Positions 1 through 64,000 of a stretch of DNA of 64,000 nucleotides are shown piece after piece (position 1 is the stretch's first letter; the number at the start of each line of letters is the position of its first letter). The notes below the pieces were generated by a model, which saw only the letters and a program-made list of their open reading frames with translations, did not search any database and was not told the DNA's origin. This stretch comes from Asterochloris sp. CNOR1. Lineage: Eukaryota; Chlorophyta; Trebouxiophyceae; Trebouxiales; Trebouxiaceae. The position numbers were made by a program, and so were the translations under genes. The stretch lies in contig OZ017759.1 in the NCBI GenBank assembly GCA_963969365.1, forward strand, positions 1,116,001-1,180,000, given 5' to 3'.

Positions 1-956
1 GCTGCAGCTGACCCAGCTGCTGGGGCCCCTCCTCTGCTGGGCCGGACAGCCAAGCCCAAGCCTGCAGCGGCAGCACCAGTGGCAAGTGTTGGCGCTCTGG
101 GTGCCACAGGCAACCCTGCCGCGCTGAGCAAGGCGGCCGGGCCAGCAGCCGCGCCGCGAGCAAGTGCTGCTGCACAGGGTCCACCACTGCCAGCTGATGG
201 TGAGTACTGCTGCCTTGGGCAACCACCAGTAACATCAAAAGTTGTCAGCCTTTCAGGAGGGCTTAGCATGGTTTTACAATGGGTGGAGCAGGCTCTTCGA
301 CCTCCTGGCGTCGTCAGTGGTGCAACCCGGGCTGTCTGGCGCCTACCACAGGCAGATATCCTCACCGTCATGTTCTTGACAAAGGGCAGCAGAGGTGCTC
401 AGCTGTGCAGCTGCACTGGCAGACGTCAGCATGCAGCTGTGCAGTTCTGGACATCCGTGACGCACAGCAGGCAGGCTCAGCGTGTACTGGCATTGACAGG
501 CAGCTGGATGCAGCGTCAAATGCCATTGAGGAATGTGCCATGCTCTACCTCTGGTTGCTCACAGCCTGTCACGTGCTTAATGTGCAGTGACAGCGCTTGT
601 GAAGGAAGTTTTTGAGGCACCTGTTGGAGCCGCAGGAGTGAGCGCAGTTGCAAAGTACCTGCAGGTGGGCATGTACTGGCTGTCTGCTGCAGCATGCCAG
701 AGTCCCTTGCTGTCAAGGCGCATGAAGAACGGTATCATTGATGAAGTATGCAGTGCAGGAGCAGCATGTCACAGCTGTCGGAGATCTGCAGTACTTGCAG
801 GTGAGTGGCTTAGCTGTCAGTGCGGTTCTGGTCTGGTGTAGCCCAACATTTCCGTGTTGGCTGTAGCTGGACTGGCTGACAAATGCCCTGGCTCCTGCTG
901 GCATTCCACCGCTGCTGGCTAACAAGTTCCTGACGCTGGCAAAGCAGAAAGCATAA
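1..956 (+). CDS. C-terminal exons of an unidentified protein (5' end outside window)
   Basis: Three exons join in phase: 1-199 (open from the first base, Ala/Pro-rich, ending GATG|GTGAGT), 588-664 (acceptor TGTGCAG, reading VTALVKEVFEAP.. to AVAKYLQ, donor GTGGGC) and 867-956 (acceptor CTGTAG, reading LDWLTNALAPAG.. and ending KFLTLAKQKA with a TAA stop). The linker-like Ala/Pro stretch is followed by a helical C-terminus. I do not recognise the family, and nothing in these roughly 120 residues gives a function. The second intron contains a degenerate repeat of the end of exon 2 with its donor, near 745-805. The exon joins are plausible, but the gene start lies to the left of the window. Confidence 0.5.
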
Positions 957-2519
957 AAGCGAGGTGATTGCTAAGCTTTGCACTGTATGCCTGAACACAA
1001 ACTTTTTGTACAGCTGTATAGAATCACCAGTTACAGTTAGACACTTTGCGGGAGTTTCAAGGCAGGAACCATTGCCTGCACAGCAATCTATTGACATGCG
1101 TACAATAAGGGCCAGCTGGTCAGTTAAGAGGGGCGCCAATCACTGTAGGGTCCAGCGCTTTCTGCATGCAGCAGCACCTGGACTTACAGACCAGCGGCAG
1201 CTGTGTGTGCAGTCTTGCTGATGCACCAGCAAGGAACAGGTATGCCTTTCAAAGCATCCTAGGGCACAGCAGGAAGCGTTGTGCTTGCCTGGAGAGACTG
1301 GAAAAAGATAGTGGTAGCGAAGAATGCTATGAGTGACATAGTGGCAGGCCAGACCTTGGGGCCTGGCCATGCAGCCTCATCGCCCTCTGTGCCACAGGAG
1401 AAGGTGGGTCAGATATCAACCTATCACACAGTACCAAACACACCATTTGAAGGAGTCTAAGGACCACCAGCTCTTGAACAATGAAATGGCACTCATCACA
1501 CTGAATACGTGGCGAAGAGCCGCTATGGCAGCACTCAGGTACACGCATGAAACTCTGCAGTTTGGCGCACCTGTATCAAAGATTCTTTTGATGTAGCTTG
1601 CCAGCAGAATGGCGGACACTCCTGTGCCAAGAGCGAGGCCTGCCTCTGCAGTGTCACTTGACTGCACAGATGCGACCGCCTGTAGTGAAGAAACATTCCA
1701 AATTGTCAAGTGCACCGCAAAAGCAATTGGCAATCTCACAGGCAATCCCAGCATTGATCAAGAAGCGAACAGCTGGACCAAGCAAGCTGAGGTGCTGTAC
1801 TCAGAGCACTCTGAAGGACTACTGCAACGCTTGACAAGCCAATGCCTCTAAGCCGTCAATTGGGACGCTTCAACAATGCCTCACCGCAGCAACTCCTATG
1901 CTAGTGACAATGGCCAGAGGCAGCGATGGTCGCCCTGGTGCCCCCTTTGGCAGCTGGGCCCTGTTCCATAGTGTCTCCCCCATGACCGTGAAGACTGTAC
2001 CACAGCAAAGCAAATTTTGGCTTGTGCACTGCATACACTCATCTTTAGGCGGTAAGGAAAGCGTGCTCACTGAAGCTGCCGCACTGCTGCGTCACAGCCA
2101 GGACAGTGCCGCTGTCCAAGGCCTGCAGAGCATCGAGACCAAGTTAAGATTGCTGCCAGAGCAAAGCTGGCTGGCTAGACTCACGTTTCTGATGTGCAGA
2201 GAAGATCGGCGATGCCTCTGATTGCCTTTGGCTGTCCAGCCACCTTGTTGTGGGAGGCCTGCCTGGATCTGGGCATGGAAATGCATCTGCAGCATGGCAG
2301 GCTGGCGCATGTTTCTTGCACAAAGGGCTGCCATGCTGCTGTTACGGATCAAGTGCACGCAGATAGTGGCAGCTGGGAATCTGACTTCGAGTCTCTCGTG
2401 AAAATTCTTTGGACCAGTGCACGCAAGCTGGCTGGTTGTGCAGCCTGCTGGTCTGCTTTTTCAGCTGCGTTGGAGGACCAGCAGTGAGCTGATCGTCAAT
2501 TCTCTCACACCACGCAGGC
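957..2519. other. Unresolved stretch between two plus-strand genes
   Basis: I cannot build a convincing gene here. Open plus-strand pieces at about 1609-1850 (containing VKCTAKAIGNLTGNPS, vaguely like an armadillo helix), 2065-2215 (AALLRHSQDSAAVQGLQ) and 2330-2487 (ending AALEDQQ and a stop) have coding-like composition but do not join by good splice sites. They could be exons of a small gene ending at 2487, directly upstream of the synthetase start, or decayed coding sequence. The promoter of the downstream synthetase should also lie in the last part of this stretch. Confidence 0.25.
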
Positions 2520-5500
2520 ATGGGCCTGCAGGGTCAGGCAGGCTCCAGGGCTATGGCAACAAGAGGCAGCGGCTGCCTGCGCAGCTTGCTGGCTAGGTGT
2601 TGCCATGCACAGCAGCGCGGTCTGTGCCATGTGCGGGTGCAGCCCTGCTTGGTCCAGACGGGCTTTTCAGCAGCAGCACAGCGCTCAGGACCCCATCACA
2701 GACATCAGCCTCGCTCTTGGGGATGTGGAGTGGCCACCAGTGCTCATGCGCAGGCTGGCAGCCCCGCAGCTACAGCTTTGGAGGTGGCTCAAGAGTCCAG
2801 CACCCAGGGGTTCATAGAGCTGCCCACCACAGAGGAGTCTCCAAATCTTGAGCGGATACGACACAGCGTGAGTGCGGCATACGGCTATTTTGCCGCTGTA
2901 GCAGGCTTGGACAAGGGGACACCATCAGCCACACAGCTGCTGAGTGCGGCATCGTGCTGCCATCTGTGCCGAAGTAGCAGCCTGGGACTTGAAACACCAG
3001 TGGCTGGAGAGCTGCTGAAGGATGTCTTTGCTGCTGCCACTGCACCTGTCACCAGCGCATCCACACCCCTGCTGCGTCTGTGGCGTCCCACCAATCAGTC
3101 TTGTCAACCGTTTGCTGTCAACCGTCTTCCTTCCATGCAGTGTGCTCACGTGATGGCCATGGCAGTGCAGAAGCTGTACCCAGGCAGTCAGGTGGGCAGG
3201 GTAATTGCAGTGGCCAGCACTCGTGCAATGCATACAAAGATCTGAGTTTGAAGTCCACAGGAGGCAGCATGCACAGCTGGGCTATCCCACTCAAACTTGT
3301 CTATATATGCACCCTCAGCTCCAAGATAGATGGCAGCAGCCATCTCTGCTTTGGGACTCTGTACCACATCAACTTGTACTCATTACCCCTGCCCAGCAGA
3401 AACCAGATGCCATCAGCGTGAGTCTGGCACCACTGCCCCAAACTGCAGGTGACTGTAGGCCCAGCCATCGAGCGCGGCTTCTTCTACGACTTTGACATGT
3501 CAGAGCCCATCACGGATAAGGACCTGAAGAAGGTCAAGCAGGAGATGCAGCGCATCATCAAAGCCAATCTGCCTTTCATCCGGGAGGAGGTGAGGCCAGG
3601 ATGGTGCTCATGTCAGCTCGATCTACCAGCTGTCACACTGGCCAGTCCACTGTCAGCCAGCTGAAGCACCAAGCACTGGGACAGATTTGGCTGTCACTTG
3701 GCTGAGTGCCATGCACATTGACAGACTCTTTCCCTCAGCAGGCTGCCAGCGGGCCAGGAGAAGCTGCCAGTCACAATCTACAGTGAAGCAGATTCTGCTT
3801 TCTCAGGCAGGGGGGTCATGGGAGTTGGCCAGGGATCCCGTAGCTTCATTTGTCAGTGCAGTCTGTGCTGCTGTTGGGTGGGCGGCACGCTTGAGACGTG
3901 CTGTTGCAGCTGCGGCCTGCATGGCATGCAGTCCTGCAAGGACCTCTGCAGGGAGGCAGAACACACCTTTCGTGTTGGTGAATATGTCAGGTATCGCGCG
4001 AGGAGGCACTCAAGCGCATACAGGAGCAAGGGGAGACGTACAAGGCTGAGATCCTGGACAGCATCACTGCCAGGTGGGGCACCTTGCAGGCATAGAGTGC
4101 AGGCCCAGGCATGTGCCAGCAGCTGGGGCAGCCAGGCGCCTGCAAGCCAGCCGCCCTAAAGGAGCTGAGCCGGGGACTGCACTTGCTTGGCAGTGTACAG
4201 GATCAGCACCAGTCGCTTTTCTGTTGGTGGTGCACAGCTGCCTGCTTGATTCACAGGTCATGCACGACTTTCCACAGCTCCTAATGCACTCTTTCAGCTG
4301 GTCATTTCCCCTCAGCAGCATGCAGCTTCCCAGGAAGAGCCTGCCCGGTTCTTGGCAAGGGACGCCAGCTCCCACCTACCTGCTGTGCTGGCAATCTCAG
4401 TCAGTTGCCCGGAACTCAAAGAAGTATGCCTGCCTGGCTCATGCGATCTGGGCCCCGGAGCCTCATGCCTGTGAAAGCCTTGGCCGTGAGCCGGAGGGCC
4501 CGTTGGAGACCTGCGACAGTGCCTGGTCTTGCAGGGATCCCACAGCCGCCATCACCATCTACCACATTGGGAAAGAAGGCGTAGACAAGGAGCACTGGTG
4601 GGACTTGTGTGCAGGGCCACACGTGGACACCACCAAGGATATCAATCCAGCAGCCATCGACCTGGAAACCGTCGCAGGTGAGGACAGGATCCTGCCTGCA
4701 GGCTGCAGGCACCGCTGCAAGCCCCTTTGTAGCTGAAGCACTACTGGAGGCTCTGCAAATGACAGTACAACATGTGCGGTCTGCGACATCTGATCTGCTG
4801 CTTGCTGTGCATGTTCAATGAGAGGGCATGCAGATGTCAGCGGCCCTGACCCCACCCTGGCTGTGCCTGACTACTGAGGTGGCTGCCCTGCCATGGCTAT
4901 GCAATGTGGGCAGCAACTCTGAGCACTGCATCCAGCTGAATGAAGGCTGGCTGTCACTTCCATGGAGGCAAGCACAGGCATTGGCATTCCATGAAGGCAA
5001 GCACAGGCATTGGCACCACCGTGTGATGGCAGCCTCAGGTGCGGCCCAACCTTCCTGAGCACCTGAACATCTGCCCTCGAGGTGCTCACTGGCAGGTGGA
5101 CGCGATGAAGGCCCGCGTGCAGCTGACTGACGGCAATGCCAGCAGTTATATACCTAGCATTGAGACTCCTGCCCTGCAGGCTGCCGCAGGCGGCAGAACA
5201 GGCCCAAGGCACAGCTGCAGCGCTCTTGTGCCCTTGCCTGTGACTGCTCACTGTGGGCTGCGCAGCAACGACATCCTGGCTGCACTGAGGTCCCCTGCAT
5301 GTCCTGCAAGTATCTTCGTGTGGCTGCAGCACACTGGGGCACTACCACATGCAGCCTAGGCCCCAGGGCCCATGACTCAGGTGCAGCCATCATTCTACTT
5401 CAGGCCAAAGGTGGCCCCCACTACGCTGCCCTTCAGTGCCTAACAGGATCAAGGCCGAGCTGCACTGCAGCTTTCATGCCGCCAGCAGCCACTCAGTGCA

Positions 5501-8500
5501 GCTTGATCTGCCTTCAGCATTGAGGCCCCTGCCCTGCAGGGGCCTACTGGCGGGGGGATGAGACAAAGGCTCAGCTGCAGCGCATCTACGGCACCGCCTG
5601 GGAGACAAAGGACCAGCTGAAGGCATATGACCGTCTCAAGGTGGAAGCCGCACGGCGGGATCACAGAAAGCTAGGCCAGGAACTGGATCTGTTCAGCCTG
5701 GGGGGGGAGGTCGCGGGTGGGGGTCTGGTATTCTGGCACCCTAAGGGAGCCATGGTGCGGCACCTGCTGGAGACTTTCTGGAAGGTGGGTCAGTGTTCGC
5801 TGTCTGCCTTTCTTGCTTTAAAGCTCAAGGCCAGAGATGGCTCTGGGACAAGGTTCAATACTGTGCAGCACTGCATAGATGCTTTCTCTGGGCTGTGACA
5901 GGCTCTCCAACCAGATCGCACATGGGGTGCAAGGTTCACATCTCTTTTCAGCTACATTACCTTTGCTGAGCATTATTGCAAATATGCTGACTGGTTGGGA
6001 AAGCTGCAGATGCAGCACAGCAGAGTGTGAGTCTTGTAGCTCAGCCACCTGGGGTTTGCTGGCTTCTGGATGCACCGCAACACCCAATGCGATGCTGTAT
6101 CTTGCAAGCATGGCTGCCTGCAGGACACCCACCTTCGGCAGGGCTACCAGCTGCTCTACACACCACACATTGCCAAGGCAGAGCTCTGGAAGACCTCAGG
6201 CCACCTTGATTTCTACGCCGACAGCATGTTTGACCGCATAAAGGTCAAGCTGTGCCCTTTTTTGAGAGAAAGAGATGCTTTGCACAGGCTTTTTTTGCCT
6301 GCCTGCTTGCTGACATGCGACCCTTGGCAGCATTTGAGCGCTAAGCGCTGAGTATCCTCCCTGCTGTGCTGCACATGCAGCAGGCGGAATTGTGTTGCCT
6401 CAGCTGCTGCCGCCCTCTGCACCAAGTCTGCCGCTGCATGTGACAGGCTGGCTCCTGAAATGCCCCAAATGCAAGCGTCCCTCATCCCAGAACTTCTCGT
6501 CGCTGTTCCTGCAGGTTGAGAATGACATGTACCAACTGCGCCCCATGAACTGCCCATTCCACATCAACATCTATAAACATGGCCAGTACAGCTACAGGGA
6601 CCTGCCCCTCAGATATGCAGAGCTGGGCACAGTTTACCGCTACGAGCGCTCTGGCACCATGCATGGGCTCTTCAGGGTGCGGGGCTTCACACAGGTGAGT
6701 GCAGTGCTCATGTGGTGCCACCACTGGCTGCAGGCTGAGAGCAGAGCTCTTGTAGTGTCCAGCTAGTGCAGGGTGTGTGCAGCGCTCCCGTGGTGCCCTC
6801 CAGCAGCTGCAGCATGTATGTCAGCTGTGGGAGCTCTGTCTGTGCTGACTGGCAAAGCGTGACATTCGCTGGCTGTGCAGTTCCCAGCAGTTGCCTGCAG
6901 GTTGTGCAGCATCTGTAAAGTGCCTGTGCACAGCATGGGTTCCCTGTGCCAGAAGGGCCCCTGATTTGTATGTGCCTGTCTGACACAGGCAGGCAGCCAC
7001 ATGTGCTCAGACCATCAAACAGGTCTTTCAGGCTGAGACGTGTTTAGCTTGCCAGACGATACAGCTCTTGCCTGCTTCTTTTGTCGGCCTGTGCTTACCC
7101 ATGGTCCCCTGCAGGATGATGGGCATATCTTCTGCCTGCCCGACCAAATAGCTGATGAGATCCGCAACACCCTGGACCTGGTAGAGAATGTAATGGGGGC
7201 CTTTGGCTTCTCCAAGCTGGAGGTGAATCTTTCCACCAGGCCAGAGAAGGCTGTGGGCAGCGATGCCATTTGGGAGCGCTCTGAAATTGCTCTGAGGGAG
7301 GCCCTTGCTGCCAAGGTGAGGGGGGCAAGGCCTCTAGCAGGCAGAACATCCTGCTCTGTGTGTACTTCAGGAAGGCTGCGGCCAGCAGTGGCATCTGTGA
7401 GCTTCTTGGGGTGCTCTGGGGGAGACCTTGGCAGCCCAGATAAGCGCTGCAGTTAATCCTGTCAGTGTCATGTGGCAGAGCTCTGGGACTGCTCAGAGAA
7501 GGAACTTGGACGGCCAGGGTGAGGGTTGCAAGAATCTCTGGTGCTTTTGAGAGGCAGAGGACCCTGCTCTGGTGTGCTCTATGGCGATAATTCCTGAACC
7601 TGGATGTTGGCTGTGTGCAGGGGTGGCCCTTTGTTGTGGACGAAGGCGGCGGTGCCTTCTACGGGCCAAAGATTGACATCAAGATCCAGGATGTGCTGGG
7701 GCGCAGGTGGCAGTGCAGTACCATCCAGCTGGACTTCAACCTGCCCGAGCGCTTTGAGATGGTGAGGTTGGGGCTTGCAGCGGCTCCCTTGCTTCACCAG
7801 CTCTCCCCTTGGCTTGTGAAGTGATGAAGGCCCCTTTGTTTGGATCAGGGCTTGCCCAACTCAATGCAAAGATACACAGGCTGCTCGTGCTCAAGGTGGG
7901 CACAAAACTGCCCAGCAAGCGCTTCCTTGCTGCCGCTGACTCCTGCTGCTGCAAAGTGGTAAGCAACCAGCCTCAAAGGCTGCACCTGCTGCATCCCTGC
8001 ATCCTGCCCCTCAATGCTGCCATGTGGTGAGTCACACTGGTGCATCTTGCCAGCTGTCACAGCAGGAACATCTGGCAGAGCCTGCCTGCATCTGCTGCAG
8101 TGCTTGCTCCTGCGCTAAATTTCAGGTGGGCTAGTTCTGCCAAAGGCCAAGCTGCCAAGCTCATGCAGAACTTTGCTACCGTCCTGTTGACTCCTGCCCT
8201 GCAGATCTGCACTGACAACCAGAAGCAGCACCCCGTCATGCCTGCACCCAATGTTCATGTTTGTGCTCATCATTGAACTGCAGACGCCCACAGGCAGGAT
8301 TGCCCACAAGCAGCGCTCCATCATGCCAGCCCATGTATCTTTCCCTGCAGATTACCAGTCTGGCTTGGGTCTCGCCTTGCTCTGCACACCTACAATGATG
8401 CGTAAGACCAGCAGCAGTGCCTGATCATGTTGCACTGCACTACAGACTGACGTCCATGCCCTTAGTCAGTGTGCCTTGCTGGTTACTGCTCACGCCCATG

Positions 8501-9422
8501 TCTGCCCCTGCCCTGCAGACCTACACTGATGCTGATCACCAGAAGCAGCGCCCCATCATGATCCACCGCGCCATCTTCGGCTCCATTGAGCGCTTCTTTG
8601 GCATCCTCGTGGAAAATTGCGGCGGTGCCTTCCCCTTGTGGCTGGCGCCCGTGCAGTGCAAGATTTTGCCAATCACAGATGCCTTTGTGGGCTACGCCAA
8701 CGAAGTCGCAGACAAGATGCGGGATGCAGGCATAAGGGTGGAGGTCTCTTCAGGTGGGCGCTCCCCTTCACTGTTCTGTCATGCTCAGCCAGAGTGTGTC
8801 ACGCGTCAGCCTTCCGGATGTGGGTTTCAACAGGTCTGCTTGCGTCAGCTGTAGCAGTCATGCTGGACCCTTACAGATGAAAGCAGGAATTTGCTTGACA
8901 TGCATGCATCTTCAAGTCACTCCCTTGACAGCAGACAGGGCAGGCCTGTGATCAGGCGCTGCCCTTATGCTGACCCACTTCGACTTGCCTGGACTCTTGT
9001 GGGTGCCCTAAACCTTTCTTTCTGAACTGCTGGAGCAGGCTGTAGCTGCTGATCTGAGGCTGCTGCATTTGTCTACCCTTTCAAACAGTGCAGCCAGAAG
9101 GCACGGCATCTGCCAGGTGTACTCTGGGCCTGCTGTATTATGAGGCTGTACTGCATCAGACAGGTACACCTGGCACTCCGACTGCAATCAAGTGCTTCAT
9201 TTCTCCCGCATGACCTGTTCTGCAGGCGAGCGCATCAACAAGGCGGTGCGCAATGCGCAGCGCTCTAAGACTCCCGTCATGTGCATCGTTGGGGAGAAGG
9301 AGGTTGAGGCCCAGTCCCTCACTGTCAGACTGTATGGGGAGGAGCAGGACAGAGGCTCCATGCCAACAGCTGATGTCATCAGCAGAATTTGCGATGCAAC
9401 GAAGGTCCGAATGCCCTTCTGA
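2520..9422 (+). CDS. Threonyl-tRNA synthetase, organellar type
   Basis: Twelve exons join in phase: 2520-2867, 3141-3191, 3449-3589, 3991-4073, 4535-4677, 5540-5784, 6124-6243, 6515-6694, 7115-7315, 7621-7761, 8519-8753, 9226-9422, giving about 694 residues. The enzyme charges tRNA-Thr with threonine. The first ~90 residues are Arg/Ser/Ala-rich without acids, like a transit peptide; a second in-frame ATG at 2553 is an equally good start. The editing domain follows ([19 protein letters not shown], later [10 protein letters not shown] with the C-x3-H pair). The class II core has motif 2 ([22 protein letters not shown]) and motif 3 around [15 protein letters not shown], then an anticodon-binding domain ([13 protein letters not shown]). 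The sequence closely follows the plant chloroplast/mitochondrial enzyme as I remember it. The first editing motif has Met where bacterial enzymes have the second His of HxxxH. Introns are 180-860 bp, and several carry copies of adjacent exon edges. Confidence 0.95.
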
Positions 9423-9508
9423 GATCAGGTCACAGGCTCCATGCCAGCTGGTGGTCTCTTCAGCAGCAAATGCGATGCGACCAGGGTCGCATGCTCTTCT
9501 GAAATCAG
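9350..9508 (+). repeat. Tandem repeat over the synthetase stop codon
   Basis: The last 75 bp of the threonyl-tRNA synthetase coding region, with its stop and flank (about 9350-9426), are followed head to tail by a diverged copy (about 9427-9508). Both contain AGGCTCCATGCCA, then GCGATGC and GTCCGAATGCCCTTCTGA or GTCGCATGCTCTTCTGAA, each followed by a similar ATCAG. A shorter third remnant (AGAGGCTCTGGGCCAGCTGATG) follows to about 9545. Only the first copy is in the reading frame; the second lies in the 3' untranslated region. Confidence 0.85.
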
Positions 9509-9552
9509 CCCTAGAGGCTCTGGGCCAGCTGATGCTGTCCAACGCCAAAGAC

Positions 9553-28119: not shown

Positions 28120-28291
28120 CTTGGCAAGACACTGCGTGGTGGGCAGGGCTCAAGCGTCACGTGTGAGCTGCGGCAGCGGACTGCCTGATGGTGCCTGATG
28201 ATGGGCTTGGCAAGACACTGCGTGGTGGGCAGGGCTCGAGCGTCACATGTGAGCTGCGGCAGCAGACTGCCTGATGGTGCCTGATGATGGG
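28120..28291. repeat. Two tandem repeats of 86 bp
   Basis: CTTGGCAAGACACTGCGTGG to CCTGATGGTGCCTGATGATGGG (28120-28205) is repeated at 28206-28291 with very few differences. It lies in a putative intron of the minus-strand gene and is young. Confidence 0.9.
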
Positions 28292-28895
28292 CTGCATGAG
28301 CACAGGGCTACAGCAGACTGCACCTGGCTGGCACTGCAGCATTATGGGGTTCAGACACTCACTGCACCTGCACATGCAGCTGTGGCTGCAACGCGGGTCC
28401 TGACCTGCTCCCGGCGGAGCAGCTCTCAGAAATGATCGCCACAGCTCCAAATACCCTGAGCATGCCAGCCCTGCTACCTGTTGGAATCTGTTCCTGCCGG
28501 GAGCCCCCAGGCTCATCTGGCCTTGGACAGCAGGGTGGCTCTGGCATAGCCCAGTTGGCAGCTAGTTGTAAAACATGTTTGGGAGCCTTGTTTGTGGGCT
28601 TGGGAGTCTCGCTGCCCATCCTGCCCTGGGCAGCAGCCATCAGCGCCACTCTTTGCTGAGCCACCAGCAGGCAAAGCTCAAGGCTTGGTCTCCCACCTTG
28701 GTAGCCTTCTTTTGCTTGGAGCCCCTAAGCCCATCCAGCCCACAGAGGCTGCAAACCGGGCCACACCCAGGAAGTGTATCTCCAGGTATAGGGCTTCACC
28801 CTGGCAGACTTTTCTGGCTTGGGAGCCCTAACGCCCGGGTTCCTGCAGCGACCCCACAATTAGCATGCCTAGCTCCACGTGCGGAGTGATCACAC

Positions 28896-43741: not shown

Positions 43742-44174
43742 TGTTGCAATATACTGAGGGACTTGAGCCATGAATGTGCCAAGCCTGAGTACGTGCTCCT
43801 AGTTCTGCTTGTGAATGCTTCTTGTGTTCTGAGCGATGCATTCCAAGTGATCACTGCGCTGGTGCAGTGGGCAAAAATACAGCATACAGGTGAAGGTTCG
43901 GCAAGGGCTAGTGCACTCTCTACACAGCTCAGAAACCCCTCATGTGCTGACTGAAGGTGAAGGGGAAGCACAGGCTGCTGCTCTCAACAGACAACATCAG
44001 TTCAAACCAGCTTTCCAGCTGCTGGCAAAGTGATGGGCCACTAGCTGTGGAGAATCTGGCGTCACAAGCTGCTTGAAGGGATAGGATTCCGGGCACTGTC
44101 CACCAGGGCTGTAGCCAAATGCCTGCAGCCATCTAAACCTGATGTCCTAGGCCTGGCAGTGAGCACCCATACTG

Positions 44175-50335: not shown

Positions 50336-50839
50336 CCAGGGGCGACATAGTGAGTAGCCATCTAGACCTCAAAGCTCTGAACAGCGGGGGCACAAAAATG
50401 TGTATCCATGACCCCTCACTCAACAGATGTTGCTCTGTCTTGCGCTGCAAGCAGCTTTGGGCCAATGCAGAGGCAGGGCAGAGCAGGACCCTGTTGCACA
50501 GACAATACTGAGTCAGTGCTACCACCTTGTGCTGCAGGCAGCTGAGGGCCAGTGCAGATGCAGCGCCCTGCTCTGCTTGAAAGGCGCAGTCTGCCAGCAC
50601 CTCTTTGAACCGGCTCTGCAGATCTGAAATTCGCACACACATCTTTTACACTGCACTGGAGTGGTCACAAGCAGGCCATGCAGCACTGAGCAGATATATG
50701 CAACACCAACATTCAAACATACAGGGGTAAGGCATCAGGTGCTCTGGTACCTGCACACAAAGATGAGGGGTCAGAGCTGCAAGACAGTGGCGTCAGCATG
50801 GTTGGCAGAGCATGGTGCAGGCTCACATGTCTATCTGGT

Positions 50840-53800
50840 CCTGCAGGGCTGCCTTGGCTGCGCTTGTGAGCCGGTGGCACCCCACAACGTTCAAACTGGT
50901 CAGAGACTTCATTGTGGCCAGGATGGCCAGCGTGGCATCTGTGCACTTCCAGCAGTACCTGCATGAGCAGACGCGACTTTGTCATTTTCAGAAACACCTG
51001 TTCCCTGTCACGTAGTGCAGGCGTGCAAAGGCTTGAGTACCAGATCCTAGATCTTGGCAGACCAGCCATGCAACCAGCTTGATGACTAGTGCAGACCAGT
51101 TGCAGTCACTTGATGCCGAGCGTGATGCTGAGGCAGCCCAAGATTACTCACATGAGGTCCAGGTAAGCCAAGCGTCTGAGTTGACTGAGGTGCTGGAAGC
51201 CTACACAGTCAGACAACAGAGCTCAACAGTTTGCCATGGATTGCACTCCGGCTGCACTGAAGTGCAAGCAACTCTGCAACATGTCAGCAGTACAGCCGCA
51301 CTGAGACGCAGGGACAGATCTGCAAGCTGGGCTGCACAGACTTTGCTGCCTGGATGCTGCAGGGCTGCACCTATCTGCAGGCAAGACACTTGACGCTGGG
51401 CTGCTCAGGGCTGGCCGCACCATCATCGGTCAGCTGCCAGAAAAACTGCATCTCCAGCCTGCTCAGCTGGGTCATCTGCGCCACCAACTCCATGGCAATG
51501 TCAGTCATCCTAAGATTCCCCTGCAGCGGCAAAGCCAGGGTCAGCCTGAGCACAGCAGGTTTGCACTACCGACCACCTGGCATTCTCACCTCTCAGAGTG
51601 CCCTGTAGCACGGCAAGCCAAGGTCATATATGAGTACAACCCCAGCTAAATGAACAGCAGCCATTATAAGCCTCAGCACAGGGCAGCAGGCAGGCATCTG
51701 CCGCACGAACGCTTCAGGTGCCACCAGAAAGCAAGCTGGACAGCTGCTGAGAACTCTCCAGACTCTTGAGCAGGATCCCTGATGAGCAGCCGCCACTCTT
51801 CCAGCCACCAAGCGACGCCCTGGGTGCCAGGGGCTGGAACTAGCTCCAGGCGCCCACAGGCACTGCTCATGGTCAGAGCATTCACCAGCAGGCCCAGAGT
51901 CCCCAGTCTCTACAGAGACTGCAGCCCCTGCATGCCTGCAGCTGGGCAGCCAGCGGCTGTCCAGGACACCCTTAATCCCTGGTAGAGCTCTCACCAGCAA
52001 GCTGGGGCTTGTGAGCCCTGTTGTCAGCAGCAGCCCCTGGCGGACTCAGTACAGGTATGCTGGGCAGGCAGCAGCGCCCACCCAGCCCAGCAGAGGACCC
52101 AAGATCAAAAGGTCGCAACAGCAGGGCCCCAGGCTGGTCAGCCCTGTGAGCGATGGCAGCCCCCATAAGGCAGCATGTAGGCAGCCAGCATCTCCTCATA
52201 TGCCCTGGATCCCTCAAAGACCTCTCACCAGCAGGCCCAGGCTGGTCAGCCCTGTGAGCGAAAGCAGCCCCTGGATGGCAGCATCAGATATCTGGCGGCA
52301 GCCCTTCAGATTGAGCGAGTGTAGGGAGGTGATCTTGCCGATGGAAGCAGCGCCTTCGTCCGACAGAGCCCAGCAGCTGCTGCAGTTCAGGTGGCGCAGG
52401 CTCTGCAGCCCTGACAGACTTGAGAGTGACACGCCTGCAGCAGCCAGTGAAAGATCTCATGGGTGTCACCCTGCATACTAGGCAGCGCAGGCGCCGCAGG
52501 CTCTGCAGCCTTGACTGGCTTGAGAGCAGAACGCCTGCAGAAGTCAGCAAGGGGCCGCAGAGGGGGTATACATGGAGTGATGCAGTGTTGACACACGCAA
52601 GCTGCCTGCAGCAGCCAGCAAGGGAGACCCTGTGGGCAGTCAGTTCAGCAAAGCAGCCCCGGCAGCCTCAACAGCGACAGGCTCATCAGCAGCCAGCAAG
52701 GTCAGTCATGGCATTGATGCAAAGCTGAGGCATGTCATGGCATCAGGCCGCATGGCACGTCAGCAGCAGTTCGCAACCAGGGTGGCAGTCGGCAAGGTGG
52801 ACCACGTAGAGACTGGCTGTATGTGTGGCAGCTCATCCCAGATACCAGCGGGCAGGATGACCTGTGCGTGTCACGGGGCCTGCGACAACACACCTGATCA
52901 TGAGCAGCAAATCTCACCAAGTACCCCCGTGCAGTCCTGCAGGCTGATGCTCCGAAGGTTGGTCATGGCAGCCAGGACAGCGAGGCACCCATCCCTCAAG
53001 CTGTGGCATGCCTGTGAGCAGCAAACAGCGATATCTGGGACTTCAGGTGTGACAGCAGAGGCAGAAGTGCACGCTGCAGCTGCGACTGCAAGAGTCTGCC
53101 AGGAAAGAAGGTGCCTGCGCTGCTACAATGTTGCCAAGTCAGACATTTGTGAGGCTATATATAGATAACAACTGGCTTTGTGCATATGCCTGCAGAGTAA
53201 TCTCCTCCCTGTTGGTCAAGCTGAGGCCATGGTGAGGGAGTAAACACGAGATAGTGGCTATCTCCATGTGCCTGACCTGCAGAGTGATTTCCTCCATGCC
53301 AGTCAAGCTGAGGTGAGGGATGCACGCTGGCGCTGGGTACACCTGTGCCAGCTTCAGGGCCCTGCAGGGCCAACACTCGCACGGCTGTCTCCATCCTCAG
53401 ACTCAGATGATTTTGAATGCTGCAAATTTTGAGTTGTCTCCAACAGTAACAGTGAAGCTGTGATGCAGTGTTCCTGGTTGCAAGCTATGGCGTCTGGCGG
53501 GGTGCACGTCAGACACCAATGTTTGTGAAGCTGGACACATCAAGTGCCTACCCAAACTCCTCTGCTGCAGTGTGTGCGGGGGGCTGCTCTTGCTGCTGCA
53601 CAACTTGATGCCAAGCAACTTGAACAAAAGGATATCTGCATTCAAGGCACCCACCCACCCAGCTTCCTCTGCTGCAGTGCGCGGCTGGGGCCGCTCTCGC
53701 AGCTGCAGCTCCCTGCACCCGCTGCAGTCCAGCACACGCAAGCTCCTGAGGCAGCTAAACCACTGCACAGCAGCGCAGGAGGTATCACTTTGGGCGGCGA

Positions 53801-56800
53801 TTCCAAACCGCTGACAGCTGGATGACCGCACAGCGGCAGACACTGGGCGAGGCATGTGAAGCGCAGTGCAGGCATCTGTTCCATTGCACAGCAGGAGAGC
53901 GGTTTTGGTGAGGCAGCCGCCCTATGGTGGAGGGAGCTGAACTGATGTGAAGCAGCAGAGGAGCCAGTGGTGCGCAGGCAGTTCATGTGCTGTTCAGCAG
54001 CAGGCCTGGACAGCTTAGCGCCAAGATCCAGCATCACAGTGCCCTCAACACAAACCTGCTGCCATGTAGCCACTGCAAACAACCTGCCAACAGCCAGCAC
54101 CAGCTAAGCATGCTAGCACAATCATCATGCAGCCCATTGGAAGTCAGCTTGCACATAGTATCTCTGCTGGCCAAATGCTTTGACATGGTTCTGTGCAGCC
54201 AAGCTGTGCATGCCAGGTTCCCACTGCCGGCCTGCACACCAACTCCCTGTGCCCACCTGGAGGTCACTGACTCTCACGAACTTGTGCTGCTGCAGCCTGA
54301 GGTGCTGCAGCCGGATCAGGTTGCCCAGAGGAGCCAGCCCCTTGCCTGTGAGACCGCGGCACTCCGACACATCCAGGAAGGTCAGCGCTGTGAGGCCCTC
54401 CAACACCTGCAGGCGACAAGGATGCAACCCCTGGCTGAGACGGCTGCCTGAGCTGAAGCGCCTGCTGCACTGAGAGCTTGCTTGTCAACACCTTTCCAGC
54501 TGATTCAATAGGGTCGGCACAGGGCGGCACCAAGGGGGTGCAGCTCAGCCCTTCTGTCAGATGCCCATGCCACTGGTCCACCCTGGTGCCTGTGTCCATG
54601 TGCATGCATTTCCTGATCAGTGGCAGAGCTCCACACTTGCACTGCTGCCAGCTGTGCAAGCCCCACCATCTCCAGAGGCGTGCCCATCTGTCTTGCTGGA
54701 GCCGTCGTTGCGCTGGCATGGTGCTGCGGCACCCATGTGTTCAAGATGGCAGATCGCTCACCTGCAGGTCTTGCAGGCCGTGGCACTCAGACAGCTCCAG
54801 GTGATGCAGGCGGGCCATGCAGCCCAGGCCCGGCAGGGGCTGCCCAGGGGGCATGACCATGTTGTAGCAGCCATGCATGGAAAGGGTATGAACTCTCGTC
54901 AGCCCTGCAGCCACACTTACATATGTGTGGTTCAAACCCTGACCAAATGGACACCCTGTGTGCAGTCATGAGCGTGCACAGGGCCCTCAGCTGTGCAGAG
55001 TGTCTATGTGCGACAGCTAGCTTACCGTAGGTAAGTTGCAAGACCAAGCTGTGCATCTCTGTTGTCGGTGATAGAGCAATTTGGCACAAATGCTGATGGA
55101 TGCTCAATACTGGCCTGTGTCCAGGTGTATGGAGGCATTGTCCAGCAGATGCACAGCTTCTCAGCTGCACCCTTGTCAGATGCTGGGACATGCTGATAGG
55201 CAGCGAGCAGCATGACCATCTGATGTCAAACTGTCAGGGCAGTACACCTGAAGGCATCTCAAGCCTTCAGCTGATGTCTGCTAACAGGTTGACAGGTGAA
55301 GAACCTCCACGCCTGTCAAAGTCAACATGCAGACTGCCCCAGGCCTGCGGCTCAAGCGCGCCTCAGCCCTTCAGCATGGAGTCATAGGTACCTGACAGGC
55401 GCCTCAAGCCCACAATTGTGATCTGCCAGCAGCTGGACAGATTGAGCACCTCCAGGCTGGTCAGCTGCCCGAGCTCCTGCATGGCCATGTCTGTGAGGCG
55501 GTGGCAGCCCTTCAGGTTGAGCTCCTTCAGGTGCAGGGCGGCCTTCAGCAGGTGCAGCCCTGGCCCTGCAACAAAATTCTGTCTTCAAGCTTGGAGGCAG
55601 GCTGCAGCAGGAGCAGTACCAGGCCTCCAGTTCTTAGGAACTTTTCTTTGAGAGGTTGGTCACGACGCGTCCACACCTACAGCTCGCTTGAGTGGTGTCA
55701 GCCTTCAGCAGATTGAGGTCTGGGTGAAGGTGGCGCTGGAGACCACTACTTGCCGATTTGCCACAGCAGCAGGCCCTGCCACCCTTTAGCTGCCACGGAG
55801 GCATTCAACAGTGACTGAAAAGCCAGCAGCATTCTGTAGCACAGGCAGCCAAGCTCAGCTGCTGAGCCAGGTGCACATGCATGCAGCAGCGTTCTGCTGG
55901 CAACCTGCCATCTCAGGAGCAGCCTCAAGAGGCCTCACTAGATGCCACCGGCACCTCAGCAGCCCCTCCTGTAAGCTCGCAGGCAGCCAGGTTGAGCTGT
56001 GGCATGGCCCAACTGCTGCACACCTGAGCTTGCAGGCAGTCGGAATGAGCTGTGGCAGCGCCTAACAGCTGCGCAGCACTTCAGCGCTCCCTGCGGTTCC
56101 ACACTGGTGATTCAAGGCCGCACCTTCAGCAATTTGTGCATATGTCGCCCCCTGTGAGATGCGCTCACAGGCAGCCAGATTGAGCTGCTGCAGGGCCGGC
56201 AGCTGCGCTATGTGCTGCAGGGCAGCATTGCCCAGCTGCTGGCATCCTCTCAGGCTGAGCTGGTGCAGCCCTAGGCCTGCCAGGCAGGCCAGCCCATCCT
56301 CCGTGATGCGCAGGCAGTTCCACAAACTCAGCGAGCGCAAGCGCGTCAGCAGGGACACCTGAGCCAGGCCTGCAGGCAGTCTATTACTGAACTGGAATGG
56401 TGCTCCGATGTCTAAGCTGCAGGCATCTGCAGGCTTGGTAAGTGCAGGCAGGGGTTCTGGCCAGGCTTGCAGGCAACTGCTTGATGGCTTTTGCTGTGTC
56501 CTGCTGTCAAGCTGCAGGCGGGTCAAGAGACTCAGCGATCGCAGGCATGTAAGCAGCAACCACTTAGCCAGGGCTGCAGGCGATGGGCAAGCTCAGACAT
56601 CGCAGCAGGGTCAGTGGCTCCGCCTGGGCAGACCGCAGGCAGCCCACAGGCAGCAGAGATTTGCATGCCTGAAGCTCGCTCACAGCACCATGTGACAGAG
56701 TCCAAATCATGGCTTGCCTGCATCAGTGATGTCCAGACATCCTGCCAAGTCCAGCTGCTCCAAGGCGGACAGCCCCCCCAGGCAGCTCAGAGCCTGCACA

Positions 56801-59615
56801 ACAGACAGGTGACGTCGGTGAGATCCGGATGCCAGGCTGCATTGCTGTTGCCTCCCAGACAGATCCAAAGAACTGAGTAAAGCTAAGGCTGAGGTCTGGG
56901 CAACCAGCTCTATTTACTTCAACATCTGAGCAAGTGTCAACCAGGGGGTTGCCTGTCCATGTTGTGGCAATAGAGGCGGTGCCACCAGCTCTCCAGCGAT
57001 GCTGAGACATGTACTTCAGGTTGCACCTCGTCAGTCACTGTGGCCACCCTTGAAGTGCCGCCCAGATGAAGCACTTGCAGGCTGGGCAGGCTCTGGGCCA
57101 GGGCGGCAATTGCCGGGCTGCTGGCTGCAACGCAGCCGCTCAGGCTGAGGCGCGTCAGGGCTGTCAGGGCCCCCAGCGCTGCCAGCCCTGCGTCCCCCAC
57201 CTGCAGGAATGCAGGCTCCACTCAGTGGGTACTCTGCGAACAGTGTCACGACTCAAGTGGGTAAGCTGGTGCTGATTGCCAGCGCTGACCTGGGCATCAG
57301 ACAAACCAGCCACAGGCTACAGGGCTGCTTGCGCTGCTGAGACAGCACCGCACTGCCTCACCCAGGGGTCCGTCAAACTTATGACCTACACCTGCAGGAG
57401 AAGTCAAAGACGCAGTCATGCAGTTGCCTTACAGCAGCTCTCTCATCACTGTCTCCTCCCAGAAAGACATGCTGTTGTCGCCTGAACATGACAAAAGGCA
57501 CTCACCCTGCAGCACCCCTCCAGGTCAAGCTCGGCCAGCGTCCGCAGCATGCCCACGTGCTGCAGGCCTGCACAGGTCAGGGCCTCACACCGCGCCAGGC
57601 TCAGGCTGGTCAGCTGCAGCGCGCCCAGACCCTGTAGCTGCCCATCTGCTGCCAGGCGGCAGGTGCTGAGGTCCAGGCTGCGCAGCGCGGGGAATCTGCA
57701 CCAGATCCAGCATCTGGTCACACAAGGCAGCGCAACAAGAGCATTTTACCGGGCGGCAGGTGCTCAGGTCTAGGCTGAGCAATGGGGAAAGCTCTGTACC
57801 AGGCACACGGGACACTTAATCCCCCATAGCCTTTGCGGGCATAGGACCTTTGGGTGGCAGGAGACTGGGGTTTCTGCTGGACCCACTCTGCAGCATGAAC
57901 GGCATTGGATTGGGTGCAGGCCTGCTGTGCATAGACAGCAGAGCATCTGCTGCCGAGCAGTAAATGTGCAGGCATAGTCTGTGCAGCACAAGGACCTGCA
58001 CCTTGCACAGAAAAGGGCATTGGTCATAATTGATCTGCCCCGCACTCGTCTCTGAATCCAAGAGTAAAGCTTTTGATGGACCTGACAGCTGCTGAGGTCT
58101 GTGCTGTGCAGCGCAAAGGCCCTGCACAGGGACTGCCACAAATCGCTTGCTCGGGCCTGTTGTGCACAGATAGGATGGTGTCTGCTGCCTAGGCCCAGGA
58201 CAATGCTGCGCAGGGCGGAGGCTTGTTTCAAGCACAGCAGTGAAGCTCCATGCCTTATGCAGGGCTTTGACCTGCAGATGGAGTGACTCAGGGACAGGCA
58301 GCAGGTAAACCCACGTGCGAGGAGTCTGTACCATGCTTACCCCAGCAAAGCTGTGATGCATATGGGCTTGCAGACCATTGTAGTCAGCTGCCTGCTGACA
58401 GCACTCTGTGCACAGCAGAACAACTTGCGAGCAGAATGACAGATGTACCTGCCCAGGGAGTGTGCGTCTCGCAGGGCCCTGGGCCTCATGCGAACCAGCC
58501 TGTTGAGGATGCACTGCTGCCAGCTTCGGCAAACCAAAATTGCATACTGCACCTGCAGGGCACCAAGCGTGCAAGCAGTCAGCAGGGTTATGCTGAGACA
58601 CTTCGGTCAGCTTGTGTCCATTGGACAATGTGAGTCTTGCAGGGCAACAGGCGCCCATGATAGACAATGCTGCAGAGGCAGACTCTGGTGAAAGACAAAG
58701 ATTAGAGCGTCCCCTGCATTCCCAGAGGCAGCAACTTGTGGACCAGGAGTGGCTTATTGAGGCCCACTCTGGCGGAGGCAGGTGCAGCACGGCAGGGAAA
58801 GCCTGCAGGGTCAATCACCTAGATCCTTGTGACTAGCCACTGCAGGGTGCGGATGCAGGCCTATCTTGGTGGATGCAGGTGGACCACGGCGCAGATCAGG
58901 AGTGGCTGGTTGCAGGCTGCAGGTGGTCAATCACCTCACTGCAGGGCGCTTGATCAGGCTTGTTCAGGCCTAGACTGATGGATGCATGTGCAGCACAGTG
59001 CAGGCTATGAGTGGCTGACTGCAGGCTGCAAGTGGCCATTCAACTCACTCTCAGTGACTAGCCATCGCAGGGGGCAGCACTCTGCTGGCTGGAAGTGGCT
59101 GAAACACTTGCAGATGCTGCAACCCCACCCCACTGGGCGCAGCTGCTTCAGGGTGCAGCAGTTTGTAGGCTCACAGGTGGGGTGTTGCAGCCTGCAAGTG
59201 GCTCATAGGCCTTTATTTTGGGGACTGAGCAGATCCCTAGGACGCCCGTCACCACCTCAGCATGAAGCAACTGCAGGCTCACCTCTTGGGGGCTCAGTCG
59301 CTCCAAAATGCAGCAGAACACGTCATCGTGCATCTCTCCCCAGCAGCTGCCACTGCCAGGCCCCTGCTGCTCAGGGCTGCCTGGCCAGTGGAGAGCGCCT
59401 GGTGATGTCCAACCCTGAGACAGCTGATTGCTGTCAGTCTTGCTGCTGAACAGGGTTCTGCGGACAACTGCTTTGTCCAGAGCTGCCTGCGGGGACTGGG
59501 GGTCCAGCTCTTGCAGGCCTGGCAAGGCTGGGGTGCCATGGCGCCGCCTTGTGGGGCTCAGGCTGCAGTTCTGTAGGGCTGCCAGTAGGAAGTCTGCAGA
59601 TTTGCTGACCGCCAT
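50840..59615 (-). CDS. F-box and leucine-rich-repeat protein
   Basis: A long minus-strand gene with many exons. The first recognised exon (59615-59283, from MAVSKSADFLLAAL) ends in the start of an F-box, WGEMHDDVFCCILERLSPQE; the next (58552-58449) continues VQYAILVCRSWQQCILNRL, joining in phase. Cysteine-containing leucine-rich repeats follow in separate exons. Examples: about 57700-57506 (SLDLSTCRLAADGQLQGL, AELDLEGCCR), 57200-57048 (LTRLSLSGCVAASSP), about 56372-56110 (LRSLSLWNCLRITEDGLA), about 55570-55391 (LNLKGCHRLTDMAMQEL), about 54430-54270, 52434-52229 (LNLKGCRQISDAAIQGL), about 51590-51400 and about 50985-50850 (LTSLNVVGCHRLTSAA). Such proteins are substrate receptors of SCF ubiquitin ligases. 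The 3' end and several middle exons are not fixed; another coding piece at 50640-50540 (DLQSRFKEVLADCAFQ) may belong to it. Introns contain repeats of repeat-unit edges. Confidence 0.78.
58730..59110. repeat. Degenerate tandem repeats of about 110 bp in the F-box intron
   Basis: Between the two F-box exons a motif recurs three to four times: GATGCAGGTG or GATGCATGTGCAGCAC, then AGGAGTGGCTGGTTGCAGGC or ATGAGTGGCTGACTGCAGGC, then TGCAG(G/A)TGG and TCAATCACCT. Starts are near 58742, 58870, 58980 and 59083. Identity between copies is moderate. Confidence 0.65.
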
Positions 59616-60054
59616 GACCTGCAGCCATGGACAAGGCTTGAATCAGCTGGAGACCTTAGGGATAGAGCTGGCAGTCTTGGGCAGTTGCATGTGCATCGCT
59701 CAGCGCGCCACCTTGGCGATGCGAAAGCTTGGCGATCAAGGATAGACGAGATCAGTGCAAGGGCTTCAGCAACCACCCAGCTGCGTTCTGCATGAGGCTG
59801 CAATGCCCTGGATTGCCAGATGCAAAAGTTAGGGTCGGACACAGGACAGATCATGGCGCATCATTGATGCATTCGTCAATCAAGCTACACAGGATAGCCT
59901 TGTTGCCTGCAATTGGACGTTGCGGAGTGTCCTGTCAGCTTCAAATGGACTGGCCTACCAAGCTGGTCATCCAATGTCCAGAGAGTTAGTTCAAGACATC
60001 CGATGACCCGAATCAACATCCACCTGAGCTGATCTTTGACACTTTGCTCTGCAG
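59616..60054. other. Divergent intergenic region before the DNA glycosylase
   Basis: Lies between the minus-strand F-box gene and the first recognised glycosylase exon. The glycosylase start codon and a short first exon should be here but I could not choose one; candidates are the ATGs at 59729 and 60003. No other gene is supported. Confidence 0.4.
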
Positions 60055-63581: not shown

Positions 63582-63586
63582 TGTAA
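63582..63586 (+). terminator. TGTAA poly(A) signal after the DNA glycosylase
   Basis: TGTAA lies 37 bp after the glycosylase stop. Position fits; the motif is short. Confidence 0.4.
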
Positions 63587-63891
63587 TGTGAGTTGACATC
63601 TTGACATTGAATACAGACTCTCCCCTCCCCGGTGTCCCTATCAATCTCTGCAAGCAAGGCAGCACAGGGTGACTATGCTGGAGCCACAGTTATCCACATG
63701 TGTTTGCTGGGCCTCTCCAGGCGGTGCTGATGGGGGATGCAGTGCTGCGAGTACAGGACATGAACCTGCAAAGTGAGCAATCAGCCACATTGGGACTGTG
63801 ATGTGCCTCAAGCAATGCAGGCAAACTTTGATGGTCTCAGTGGCAGCAAAGGCTGAGGGCTGTCAATCCGCAGGCTCAGTTGCAGGGGCAG

Positions 63892-64000
63892 CTAAGGCAC
63901 CCGCACATGCGGGCACACCTCACGCAGCAGGTCGCCCCACAGCCGCCGCACAGCAGTGAGTGCCCGCTGCTGCTTGTCTCTCAGCAAGACAAAGCGCTGC
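63892..64000 (-). CDS. C-terminal piece of a minus-strand gene (runs off the window)
   Basis: The minus strand reads QRFVLLRDKQQRALTAVRRL, WGDLLREVCPHVRVP and a TAG stop ending at 63892, an Arg/Leu-rich helix with good coding character. It may end at this stop or be spliced at GAG|GTGTGC near 63916. It is convergent with the DNA glycosylase gene. Too short to identify. Confidence 0.45.
   Translation of the reverse strand, partial: QRFVLLRDKQQRALTAVRRLWGDLLREVCPHVRVP

What the first reader, a model, noticed from the sequence alone, without database searches (positions are those of the whole stretch)
1..64000. Exon-edge echoes: introns carry serial degenerate copies of their own flanking exon edges
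In at least nine unrelated genes on both strands, introns hold one to four direct copies of the neighbouring exon edge with its splice site: acceptor plus exon start in the upstream intron, donor plus exon end in the downstream intron. Copies are about 30-70 bp, spaced about 50-250 bp, graded in decay, and often still translate like the true edge with AG or GT in register. The gene-specific sequence rules out a dispersed intron-borne element, and a purely shared splice motif cannot explain the coding match. Possible causes (inference): recurrent short tandem duplication or template switching at splice junctions, intron lengthening by copying, or selection for decoy or alternative splice sites. 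The tandem-duplication model of intron gain is the nearest known idea; I know of no description of this serial pattern.
Basis: partly seen in the sequence, partly recalled or inferred. Interest (0 to 1): 0.92.

Follow-up and report, generated by a model that had tools for sequence, protein, structure and literature searches.

The report
Decayed tandem copies of exon edges
In this green-alga DNA many introns hold worn copies of the exon edge beside them, most likely leftovers of small side-by-side DNA duplications that crossed an exon edge, lengthened the intron and then decayed.

Summary
In 264 kb, 60 exonic bases at an exon edge match their own adjacent intron at p<=0.01 in 80 of 610 tests (13%, chance 1%); exon middles, wrong-side introns, reverse complements and non-adjacent exons stay near chance. 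An unseen fifth stretch gives 9 of 80.

It is not specific to splice junctions. Direct similarities at lags of 51-150 bp are about 250-300 times as dense as far away, with few inverted ones, and random intron pieces also match their own intron (7-10%). Many pairs carry a tandem-duplication signature. Best explanation: short tandem duplications; those crossing an exon edge leave the mRNA intact and lengthen the intron; the intronic copy decays while the exon copy is conserved. A simulation with mostly old events comes near the observed numbers; a steady-age one does not.

Against it: exon/exon pairs are not depleted, intergenic DNA has fewer copies, and echoes have fewer in-frame stops than neutrality predicts. 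Boundary-crossing duplication is known from single genes; the density is the new part.

The parts
5540..5784 (+). ThrRS exon (homology-supported); its start is the source of upstream copies
   Evidence: open frame across the ten exons of the conserved core; aligned to 7 relatives, no insertion at this junction
5088..5140 (+). echo of exon 5540 start, lag 458
   Evidence: score 19, 0 of 400 controls
5156..5223 (+). echo of acceptor plus exon start 5516-5583, lag 360, 75% identical
   Evidence: search of the assembly finds only itself and its own exon edge
8519..8753 (+). ThrRS exon; its start is the source of three upstream copies
8212..8240 (+). echo of exon 8519 start, lag 320
   Evidence: 0 of 400 controls; my gene finder mistook 8205-8258 for an exon
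8304..8325 (+). echo of exon 8519 start, lag 235
8388..8438 (+). echo of exon 8519 start, lag 131
7383..7439 (+). echo of the end of exon 7115-7315, lag 125
7466..7508 (+). second echo of the end of exon 7115-7315, lag 202
9342..9531 (+). last ThrRS coding bases with the stop codon, followed by about 1.2 decayed copies in the 3' flank (period 81): a boundary without a splice site
   Evidence: p 0.0025. My gene finder ended the exon at 9404, so one search counted it as a donor edge
19168..19194 (+). echo of the start of MFS-transporter exon 19383-19554, lag 215
   Evidence: MFS_1 match of the gene
23378..23417 (+). echo of the start of exon 23488-23648, lag 128
23075..23111 (+). echo of the end of exon 22708-22878, lag 235
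28894..29137 (-). exon whose end (28894 side) has four echoes at lags 96, 200, 315, 418
28499..28836 (-). four-rung ladder of echoes of the end of exon 28894-29137
39775..39875 (-). two echoes of the start of exon 39468-39646, lags 172 and 231
45239..45274 (-). echo of the start of exon 44860-45135, lag 139
   Evidence: Gly_transf_sug match of the gene
51886..52176 (-). three echoes of the end of LRR exon 52229-52434, lags 108, 234, 343
   Evidence: LRR protein, so coding repeats are a caveat
56514..56572 (-). echo of the start of exon 56169-56369, lag 204
57749..58114 (-). three echoes of the start of exon 57506-57695, lags 97, 301, 426
28120..28293 (.). young 86-bp tandem duplication, 97% identical, with no predicted exon edge in it: a fresh example of the underlying process
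25922..26205 (.). recent near-tandem duplication of about 150 bp (pieces 96% and 100% identical), non-coding in my models

Best explanation
Short tandem duplications, some tens to about 200 bp long, are frequent in this genome, at least in genes. Those inside coding exons tend to be removed because they change the protein. Those in introns are tolerated. Those spanning an exon edge are also tolerated, because the outer splice site can still be used and the mRNA stays the same; the extra copy of the exon edge then lies in the intron, which grows by one unit, and repeated events give ladders. The intronic copy drifts while the exon copy is held by selection, so exon-echo pairs stay recognisable longer than intron-intron pairs, and the intron half of the unit, drifting on both sides, fades first. 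Shown: local, mostly direct repeats; a tandem signature in many pairs; a gradient of copies from the edge into the exon. Inferred: the purging step, continued use of the outer splice site, and a mostly old age of the events.
For: Direct similarities at lag 51-150 are about 250-300 times as dense per cell as at 20-24 kb; up to lag 600 there are 262 direct and 9 inverted. Six stretches at score 16: 421 near, 12 far, 20 inverted; 50 kb of E. coli K-12: 4, 0, 0. Of 184 near pairs without trusted exon, 51 are contiguous or of lag under 60 and 59 of the other 133 have a homologous spacer at p<=0.01; of 145 exon/non-exon pairs, 15 and 32 of 130. Copy coverage falls with distance from an edge into the exon: 0.128, 0.106, 0.074, 0.036, 0.029 in 20-bp steps to 100 bp, the shape given by simulated uniform tandem duplication. 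Old-age neutral simulation (two age ranges): edge/intron hit ratio 1.3 and 2.8 (observed 1.2-1.9, by sample of intron pieces), intron half detected 0.28 and 0.10 (observed 8 of 67), identity 0.77 and 0.75 (observed 0.76-0.78). Some ladders have near-equal steps, e.g. 102, 103, 102. Echoes are commoner in long flanks: about 0.03 below 300 bp, 0.18 at 450-600 bp, though long flanks also offer more room.
Against: With steady ages the model fails: intron half predicted in 41-50% (observed 12%), edge/intron ratio at most about 0.8, and edge coverage is 1.4-1.8 times what it predicts; the old-age version was fitted afterwards. Exon/exon pairs are hardly depleted (18 observed, 20.7 expected with uniform placement) and 9 of 29 tandem arrays overlap trusted exons, so purging inside exons is not shown directly. 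Intergenic DNA has about half the coverage of introns (0.045 versus 0.06-0.11), so the process is not uniform everywhere. Echoes have fewer in-frame stops than expected: 6 of 76 versus 12.8 (P 0.017); 6 of 77 versus 24-28% in simulation with longer hits. Ladder steps are not significantly regular overall (P 0.115). Other coding ends: 1 of 23 stop ends, 0 of 18 start ends, too few to tell.
Confidence: 0.68

Rival explanations
1. Edge-targeted copying: a process tied to splice junctions (for example templated insertion or an RNA-based step) copies about 50 exonic bases plus the splice motif into the neighbouring intron.
For: On the copy's diagonal, similarity falls to background 10-20 bp into the intron (0.30 acceptor, 0.28 donor) where steady-age tandem simulation gives 0.46-0.54; the intron half is found in only 8 of 67; edges are hit 1.2-1.9 times as often as intron pieces where steady-age simulation gives 0.8 or less.
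Against: A tandem signature is present in 32 of 130 gapped exon/non-exon pairs plus 15 contiguous or short-lag ones; intronic repeats of the same lag and orientation abound; older ages can explain the missing half.
Confidence: 0.15
2. Selected decoys or alternative exon edges: echoes are kept because they regulate splicing or add protein variants.
For: In-frame stops are depleted; AG or GT in register in about half of the copies that reach the edge; two echoes differ mostly by synonymous changes (9:3 and 7:2).
Against: Differences at codon positions 1 and 2 are high (0.21 and 0.20, against 0.30 at position 3); lags are not preferentially multiples of three; splice dinucleotides are about as well kept as neighbours; none of 7 relatives' ThrRS has a matching insertion.
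Confidence: 0.11
3. Method artefact: shared splice motifs, low complexity, wrong gene models or repeat proteins.
For: Gene models are my own, some merge genes, and at least one counted edge is really a stop codon (9404/9421); LRR proteins occur in the window.
Against: Splice motifs masked and controls near 1%; leaving out three repeat-rich models keeps 64 of 564 edges; ThrRS exons are fixed by homology; the unseen stretch repeats the result.
Confidence: 0.03
4. Intron gain by tandem duplication of AGGT exonic segments, the echoes marking the birth of the introns.
For: Known process (PMC4974935 introduction; PMC3443670 passages).
Against: Pairs in which both copies span a boundary are not enriched (10 observed, 9.8 expected; an indirect test); in exons of 120 bp or more the copies match one edge only.
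Confidence: 0.03

Closest known systems
Boundary-crossing tandem duplication in a potato RNA-dependent RNA polymerase gene (PMC4974935; abstract and introduction read)
   Same: Tandem duplication across one intron-exon boundary; a copy of exon sequence ends up in an intron; splice signals inherited
   Different: Single case that gave a new intron; here many genes, existing introns lengthened, serial and decayed copies
Tandem genomic duplication model of intron gain (Rogers 1989, Hellsten 2011, as described in PMC3443670 passages and the PMC4974935 introduction)
   Same: Tandem duplication of exonic sequence becomes intronic
   Different: Needs AGGT in both copies and makes both ends of an intron; here one edge of an existing intron is copied
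Drosophila introns ascribed to tandem duplication (PMC2891723; abstract and one section read)
   Same: Exonic copies intronised; the paper notes that old duplications lose their footprint and cites population data on frequent tandem duplications (median 367 nt)
   Different: Concerns new intron positions, seven introns
[quoted passage not shown] not held; seen only as cited in PMC4974935)
   Same: Internal duplications are said to be common
   Different: As far as I recall it deals with duplicated exonic segments, not decayed edge copies in existing introns
Introner elements (PMC9860276; search listing only)
   Same: Repeated sequence in introns
   Different: Copies inserted in many genes; here local
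Minisatellites (recalled)
   Same: Tandem units, ladders
   Different: Two to five heavily decayed copies; the 29 arrays that TRF finds have a median of 2.1 copies

Membership tests
Tandem duplication across an exon-intron boundary | direct orientation, local | tested here: met
   262 direct and 9 inverted up to lag 600
Tandem duplication across an exon-intron boundary | unit equals spacing, so the spacer is duplicated too | tested here: inconclusive
   pairs without trusted exon 59 of 133 plus 51 contiguous or short-lag; exon/non-exon pairs 32 of 130 plus 15; stricter test on nearest echoes 8 of 67, below steady-age simulation, near old-age simulation
Tandem duplication across an exon-intron boundary | copies gene-specific | tested here: met
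   three introns against the 56.4-Mb assembly, no match outside the gene; limited sensitivity, since searches did not recover the copy in the same gene
Tandem duplication across an exon-intron boundary | unduplicated state in relatives | not testable with these tools
   no relatives of this genome are held
Intron gain by AGGT tandem duplication | donor region similar to acceptor region of the same intron | tested here: inconclusive
   only an indirect class count: both copies boundary-spanning, 10 versus 9.8 expected, lags up to 500
Introner elements | same sequence in introns of many genes | tested here: not met
   three introns, no match in other genes
Whole-exon duplication (mutually exclusive exons) | both edges of the exon recur on one side | tested here: not met
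   exons of 120 bp or more: start versus downstream 1 of 207, end versus upstream 0 of 211; fifth stretch 0 of 31 and 2 of 34
Alternative or decoy splice sites under selection | splice use or conservation of the copy | not testable with these tools
   no RNA-seq or relatives; indirect tests mixed

The most novel reading that the evidence does not exclude
Exon-intron junctions are themselves preferred sources of copying, or their copies are kept by selection: introns in this lineage grow largely from their own edges, and a share of the echoes works as latent alternative exon edges, which would explain the missing intron halves and the shortage of in-frame stops together.
Probability: 0.2. Interest if true: 0.85.

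Novelty: new variant of a known kind. Interest (0 to 1): 0.52.

Why it matters
In this sample about one exon edge in eight still carries a trace of a duplication that crossed it (75 of 610). If that holds genome-wide, boundary-spanning tandem duplication would be a sizeable, easily overlooked source of intron length, of cryptic splice sites and of false exons in gene prediction: my own gene finder took two ThrRS echoes for exons. The conserved exon copy acts as a built-in reference for each event, so intron growth could be followed from a single genome.

Tried and rejected
Dispersed intron-borne element: not supported, three introns have no match outside their gene (two are echo introns, the third, 20570-21115, was picked from a 20-base HSP; sensitivity limited). 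Shared splice motif: rejected by masking and controls. Intron gain by AGGT duplication: no excess in an indirect class count. Whole-exon duplication: not supported. Coding use of echoes: no lag-mod-3 bias, but the stop deficit is unexplained. Steady-age tandem model: rejected by the intron-half and ratio tests; slower decay of echoes (r 0.5 and 0.35) fitted partly; mostly old ages came near. Microhomology at breakpoints: 14 young contiguous cases, no conclusion. A preferred unit near 85-105 bp is at most a weak bump. Literature: seven searches (listings of 20 of 43, 15 of 19, 15 of 18, 7 of 7, 12 of 30, 0, 1 of 1) showed no title on serial decayed exon-edge copies in introns; most subscription journals are not held. 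Passages of PMC9612004 and PMC12712428 were seen and not used. On rechecking the calls I added results against my reading (exon/exon pairs, tandem arrays in exons, intergenic coverage, a wider edge/intron ratio) and lowered the main confidence from 0.72 to 0.68, with small rises for the rivals.
Full report
What the window is. The window is G000:C14:1116001-1180000 of a 56.4-Mb assembly in 21 contigs, GC 0.575. Its threonyl-tRNA synthetase is closest, among the listed hits with an organism name, to Trebouxia sp. C0006, 76%, which points to a trebouxiophyte green alga. Size and GC match Asterochloris glomerata as given in PMC6652019 (passages seen: 56 Mb, GC 56-62% in 98% of the genome, 9 introns per gene); that this is the genus is inference. 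I hold the window, four 50-kb stretches (C1-C4) and a fifth (C10): 314 kb, 0.56% of the assembly. All rates below are for this sample.

Gene models. I set ten ThrRS exons of the conserved core by hand (from 3449 on; N-terminal exons not set); they give one open frame and align to seven relatives without insertion at the junctions discussed. From this seed I trained a small gene finder on 264 kb: 42 models, 554 exons in the 41 models of 300 bp or more. Some models merge neighbours, two ThrRS echoes were wrongly taken as exons (5180-5227, 8205-8258), and the last ThrRS exon was ended at 9404 instead of the stop at 9421. I used only exons with coding score 6 or more and length 45 or more, 338 in all, which drops both false exons (scores 0.8 and 1.4). 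Six proteins from the window, some cut by hand, were scanned with Pfam: Lipase_3, MFS_1, DIOX_N and 2OG-FeII_Oxy, Gly_transf_sug and LRR families pass their cut-offs; a HhH-GPD match does not.

Sixty exonic bases at each edge were compared with the adjacent intron, splice motif removed from the target, and ranked against introns of other genes. Exon starts match the upstream intron at p<=0.01 in 40 of 306, exon ends the downstream intron in 40 of 304. Controls: 1 of 207 and 0 of 211 (wrong side), 1 of 100 and 1 of 95 (exon middle), 2 of 306 and 4 of 304 (reverse complement), 1 of 282 (non-adjacent exon of the same gene). The fifth stretch, run without retraining, gave 5 of 42 and 4 of 38; controls 0 of 31, 2 of 34, 1 of 35 and 0 of 80. 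Counting copies with a 1% threshold per edge: 103 on 75 of 610 edges, in 25 of 42 models; 21 edges with two or more where 7.8 are expected. Without three repeat-rich models 64 of 564 edges remain. Three introns were searched in the whole assembly: one found itself and its own exon edge, two only themselves. The third was chosen from an HSP and is not among the edges. Searches did not recover the copy in the same gene, so they exclude only strong copies elsewhere.

It is part of something wider. Ungapped direct similarities at lags of 51-150 bp are about 250-300 times denser than at 20-24 kb; the excess is 8-fold at 401-600 and about 3.5-fold at 601-1000. Up to lag 600 there are 262 direct and 9 inverted. 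At score 16 the six stretches have 421 near, 12 far and 20 inverted hits; 50 kb of E. coli K-12 have 4, 0 and 0. In the 264 kb, 8.6% of bases lie in such copies, 0.28% in the far control; introns have 0.06-0.11, intergenic bases 0.045. Compared with uniform random placement, the 349 pairs fall as follows: intron/intron 140 (145 expected), exon/intron 62 (64), exon/exon 18 (21), intergenic/intergenic 12 (21), intron versus boundary-spanning 91 (55). So edges are raised, intergenic DNA is low, and exon/exon pairs are hardly depleted, which I had expected them to be; falsely predicted exons and repeat proteins may contribute. Random intron pieces match elsewhere in their own intron in 18 of 243, 63 of 729 and, in the fifth stretch, 8 of 105, and 50 of 486. 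One set of copies spans the ThrRS stop codon into the 3' flank (9342-9531), where no splice site is involved; other coding ends gave 1 of 23 (stop) and 0 of 18 (start).

Tandem duplication. Young cases include plain tandem ones, for example 28120-28293, 86 bp, 97%. For other pairs I asked whether the spacer between the copies also recurs next to them. In pairs without trusted exon it does in 59 of 133 at p<=0.01, besides 51 contiguous or short-lag ones; in exon/non-exon pairs 32 of 130, besides 15; in exon/exon pairs 1 of 11 printed, besides 8. Several edges carry ladders: steps 102, 103, 102 (C2, exon 43902-44095); 96, 104, 115, 103 (window 28894-29137); 108, 126, 109 (window 52229-52434); over all 21 multi-copy edges, step regularity is not significant (P 0.115). 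Echoes are rarer in short flanks (about 0.03 below 300 bp) than in long ones (0.18 at 450-600 bp), as expected if the copies lengthened them, or simply because long flanks have room.

Why exon edges stand out. Copy coverage inside exons falls from 0.128 at 0-20 bp from an edge to 0.029 at 80-100 bp, then 0.074 beyond 100 bp (perhaps internally repetitive exons; not checked). Simulated uniform tandem duplication with exonic events removed has the same fall but an amplitude 1.4-1.8 times lower. Steady-age simulations fail in three ways: edge/intron hit ratio 0.4-0.8 (observed 1.2-1.9, depending on which intron sample is taken, like-for-like thresholds giving the lower value), intron half of the unit found in 41-50% (observed 8 of 67 at p<=0.01 and 14 of 67 at p<=0.05), identity 0.83 (observed 0.76). 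Exon-middle hits are predicted at 0.24-0.31 of edge hits with units of 80-180 bp and 0.06-0.12 with other unit sets; none above chance are seen. Letting echoes decay more slowly repairs part. Letting the events be mostly old (0.15-0.5 or 0.25-0.6 substitutions per site) with neutral echoes gives ratio 1.3 or 2.8, intron half 0.28 or 0.10, identity 0.77 or 0.75. This comes near what is seen, but it was fitted after the failure, with two age ranges, on the acceptor side only, and is not an independent test. The reason for the excess would be simple: the exon copy hardly changes, so exon-echo pairs diverge at about half the rate of intron-intron pairs.

Function of the copies. Differences at codon positions 1, 2, 3 are 0.21, 0.20, 0.30 and lags modulo 3 are 28, 38, 37; single-change codons are 141 synonymous to 202 not, a share of 0.41 against 0.34-0.40 in neutral simulation. 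AG is kept in register in 14 of 26 and GT in 14 of 28, about as well as neighbouring dinucleotides. So most echoes look neutral. Against this, echoes hold fewer in-frame stops than expected: 6 versus 16.3 of 77, 6 versus 12.8 of 76 with an empirical change matrix, P 0.017, and 6 of 77 versus 24-28% in simulation, where hits are somewhat longer (15-16 versus 12 codons). I have no explanation; it may be chance among many tests, or some echoes may be used.

Relation to the literature. A tandem duplication crossing an intron-exon boundary is described in a potato RdRp gene, where it made a new intron (PMC4974935, abstract and introduction). The AGGT tandem-duplication model and Drosophila cases are related (PMC3443670 passages; PMC2891723 abstract and section). 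Seven searches (listed titles only) showed no account of serial decayed exon-edge copies as a genome-scale feature. The process is known; its density in this sample, and its use as a record of intron growth, is the new part.

Noticed in passing
window 9342-9531: End of the ThrRS coding sequence with its stop codon is repeated about 1.2 times more in the 3' flank (period 81), a boundary echo without a splice site.
   Followed up: partly
window 33677-33859: 90-bp tandem repeat (a multiple of three) inside a long predicted coding exon, 87% identical.
   Followed up: no
window 25922-26205: Near-tandem duplication of about 150 bp, pieces 96% and 100% identical, among the youngest in the window.
   Followed up: no
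window 50738-60795, minus strand: Two neighbouring models that look like LRR protein genes (one tested with Pfam); coding repeats of their own complicate echo counts here.
   Followed up: partly
window 21231-21390: Short-period (lags 31, 62, 93) degenerate array shortly after the donor of exon 21116-21218, possibly an echo ladder of small unit.
   Followed up: no
C2 stretch (L007-L011), exon 1218-1384 (minus), nearest echo at lag 121: Echo differs from its exon by nine synonymous and three nonsynonymous single-change codons, as if it had been translated for some time.
   Followed up: partly
all stretches of the first 264 kb: In-frame stops in echoes are about half of neutral expectation (6 versus 12.8).
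   Followed up: partly
first 264 kb: Intergenic bases have about half the local-copy coverage of introns (0.045 versus 0.06-0.11), unexplained.
   Followed up: no
all six stretches: Weak excess of repeat lags around 85-105 bp over a smooth background.
   Followed up: partly
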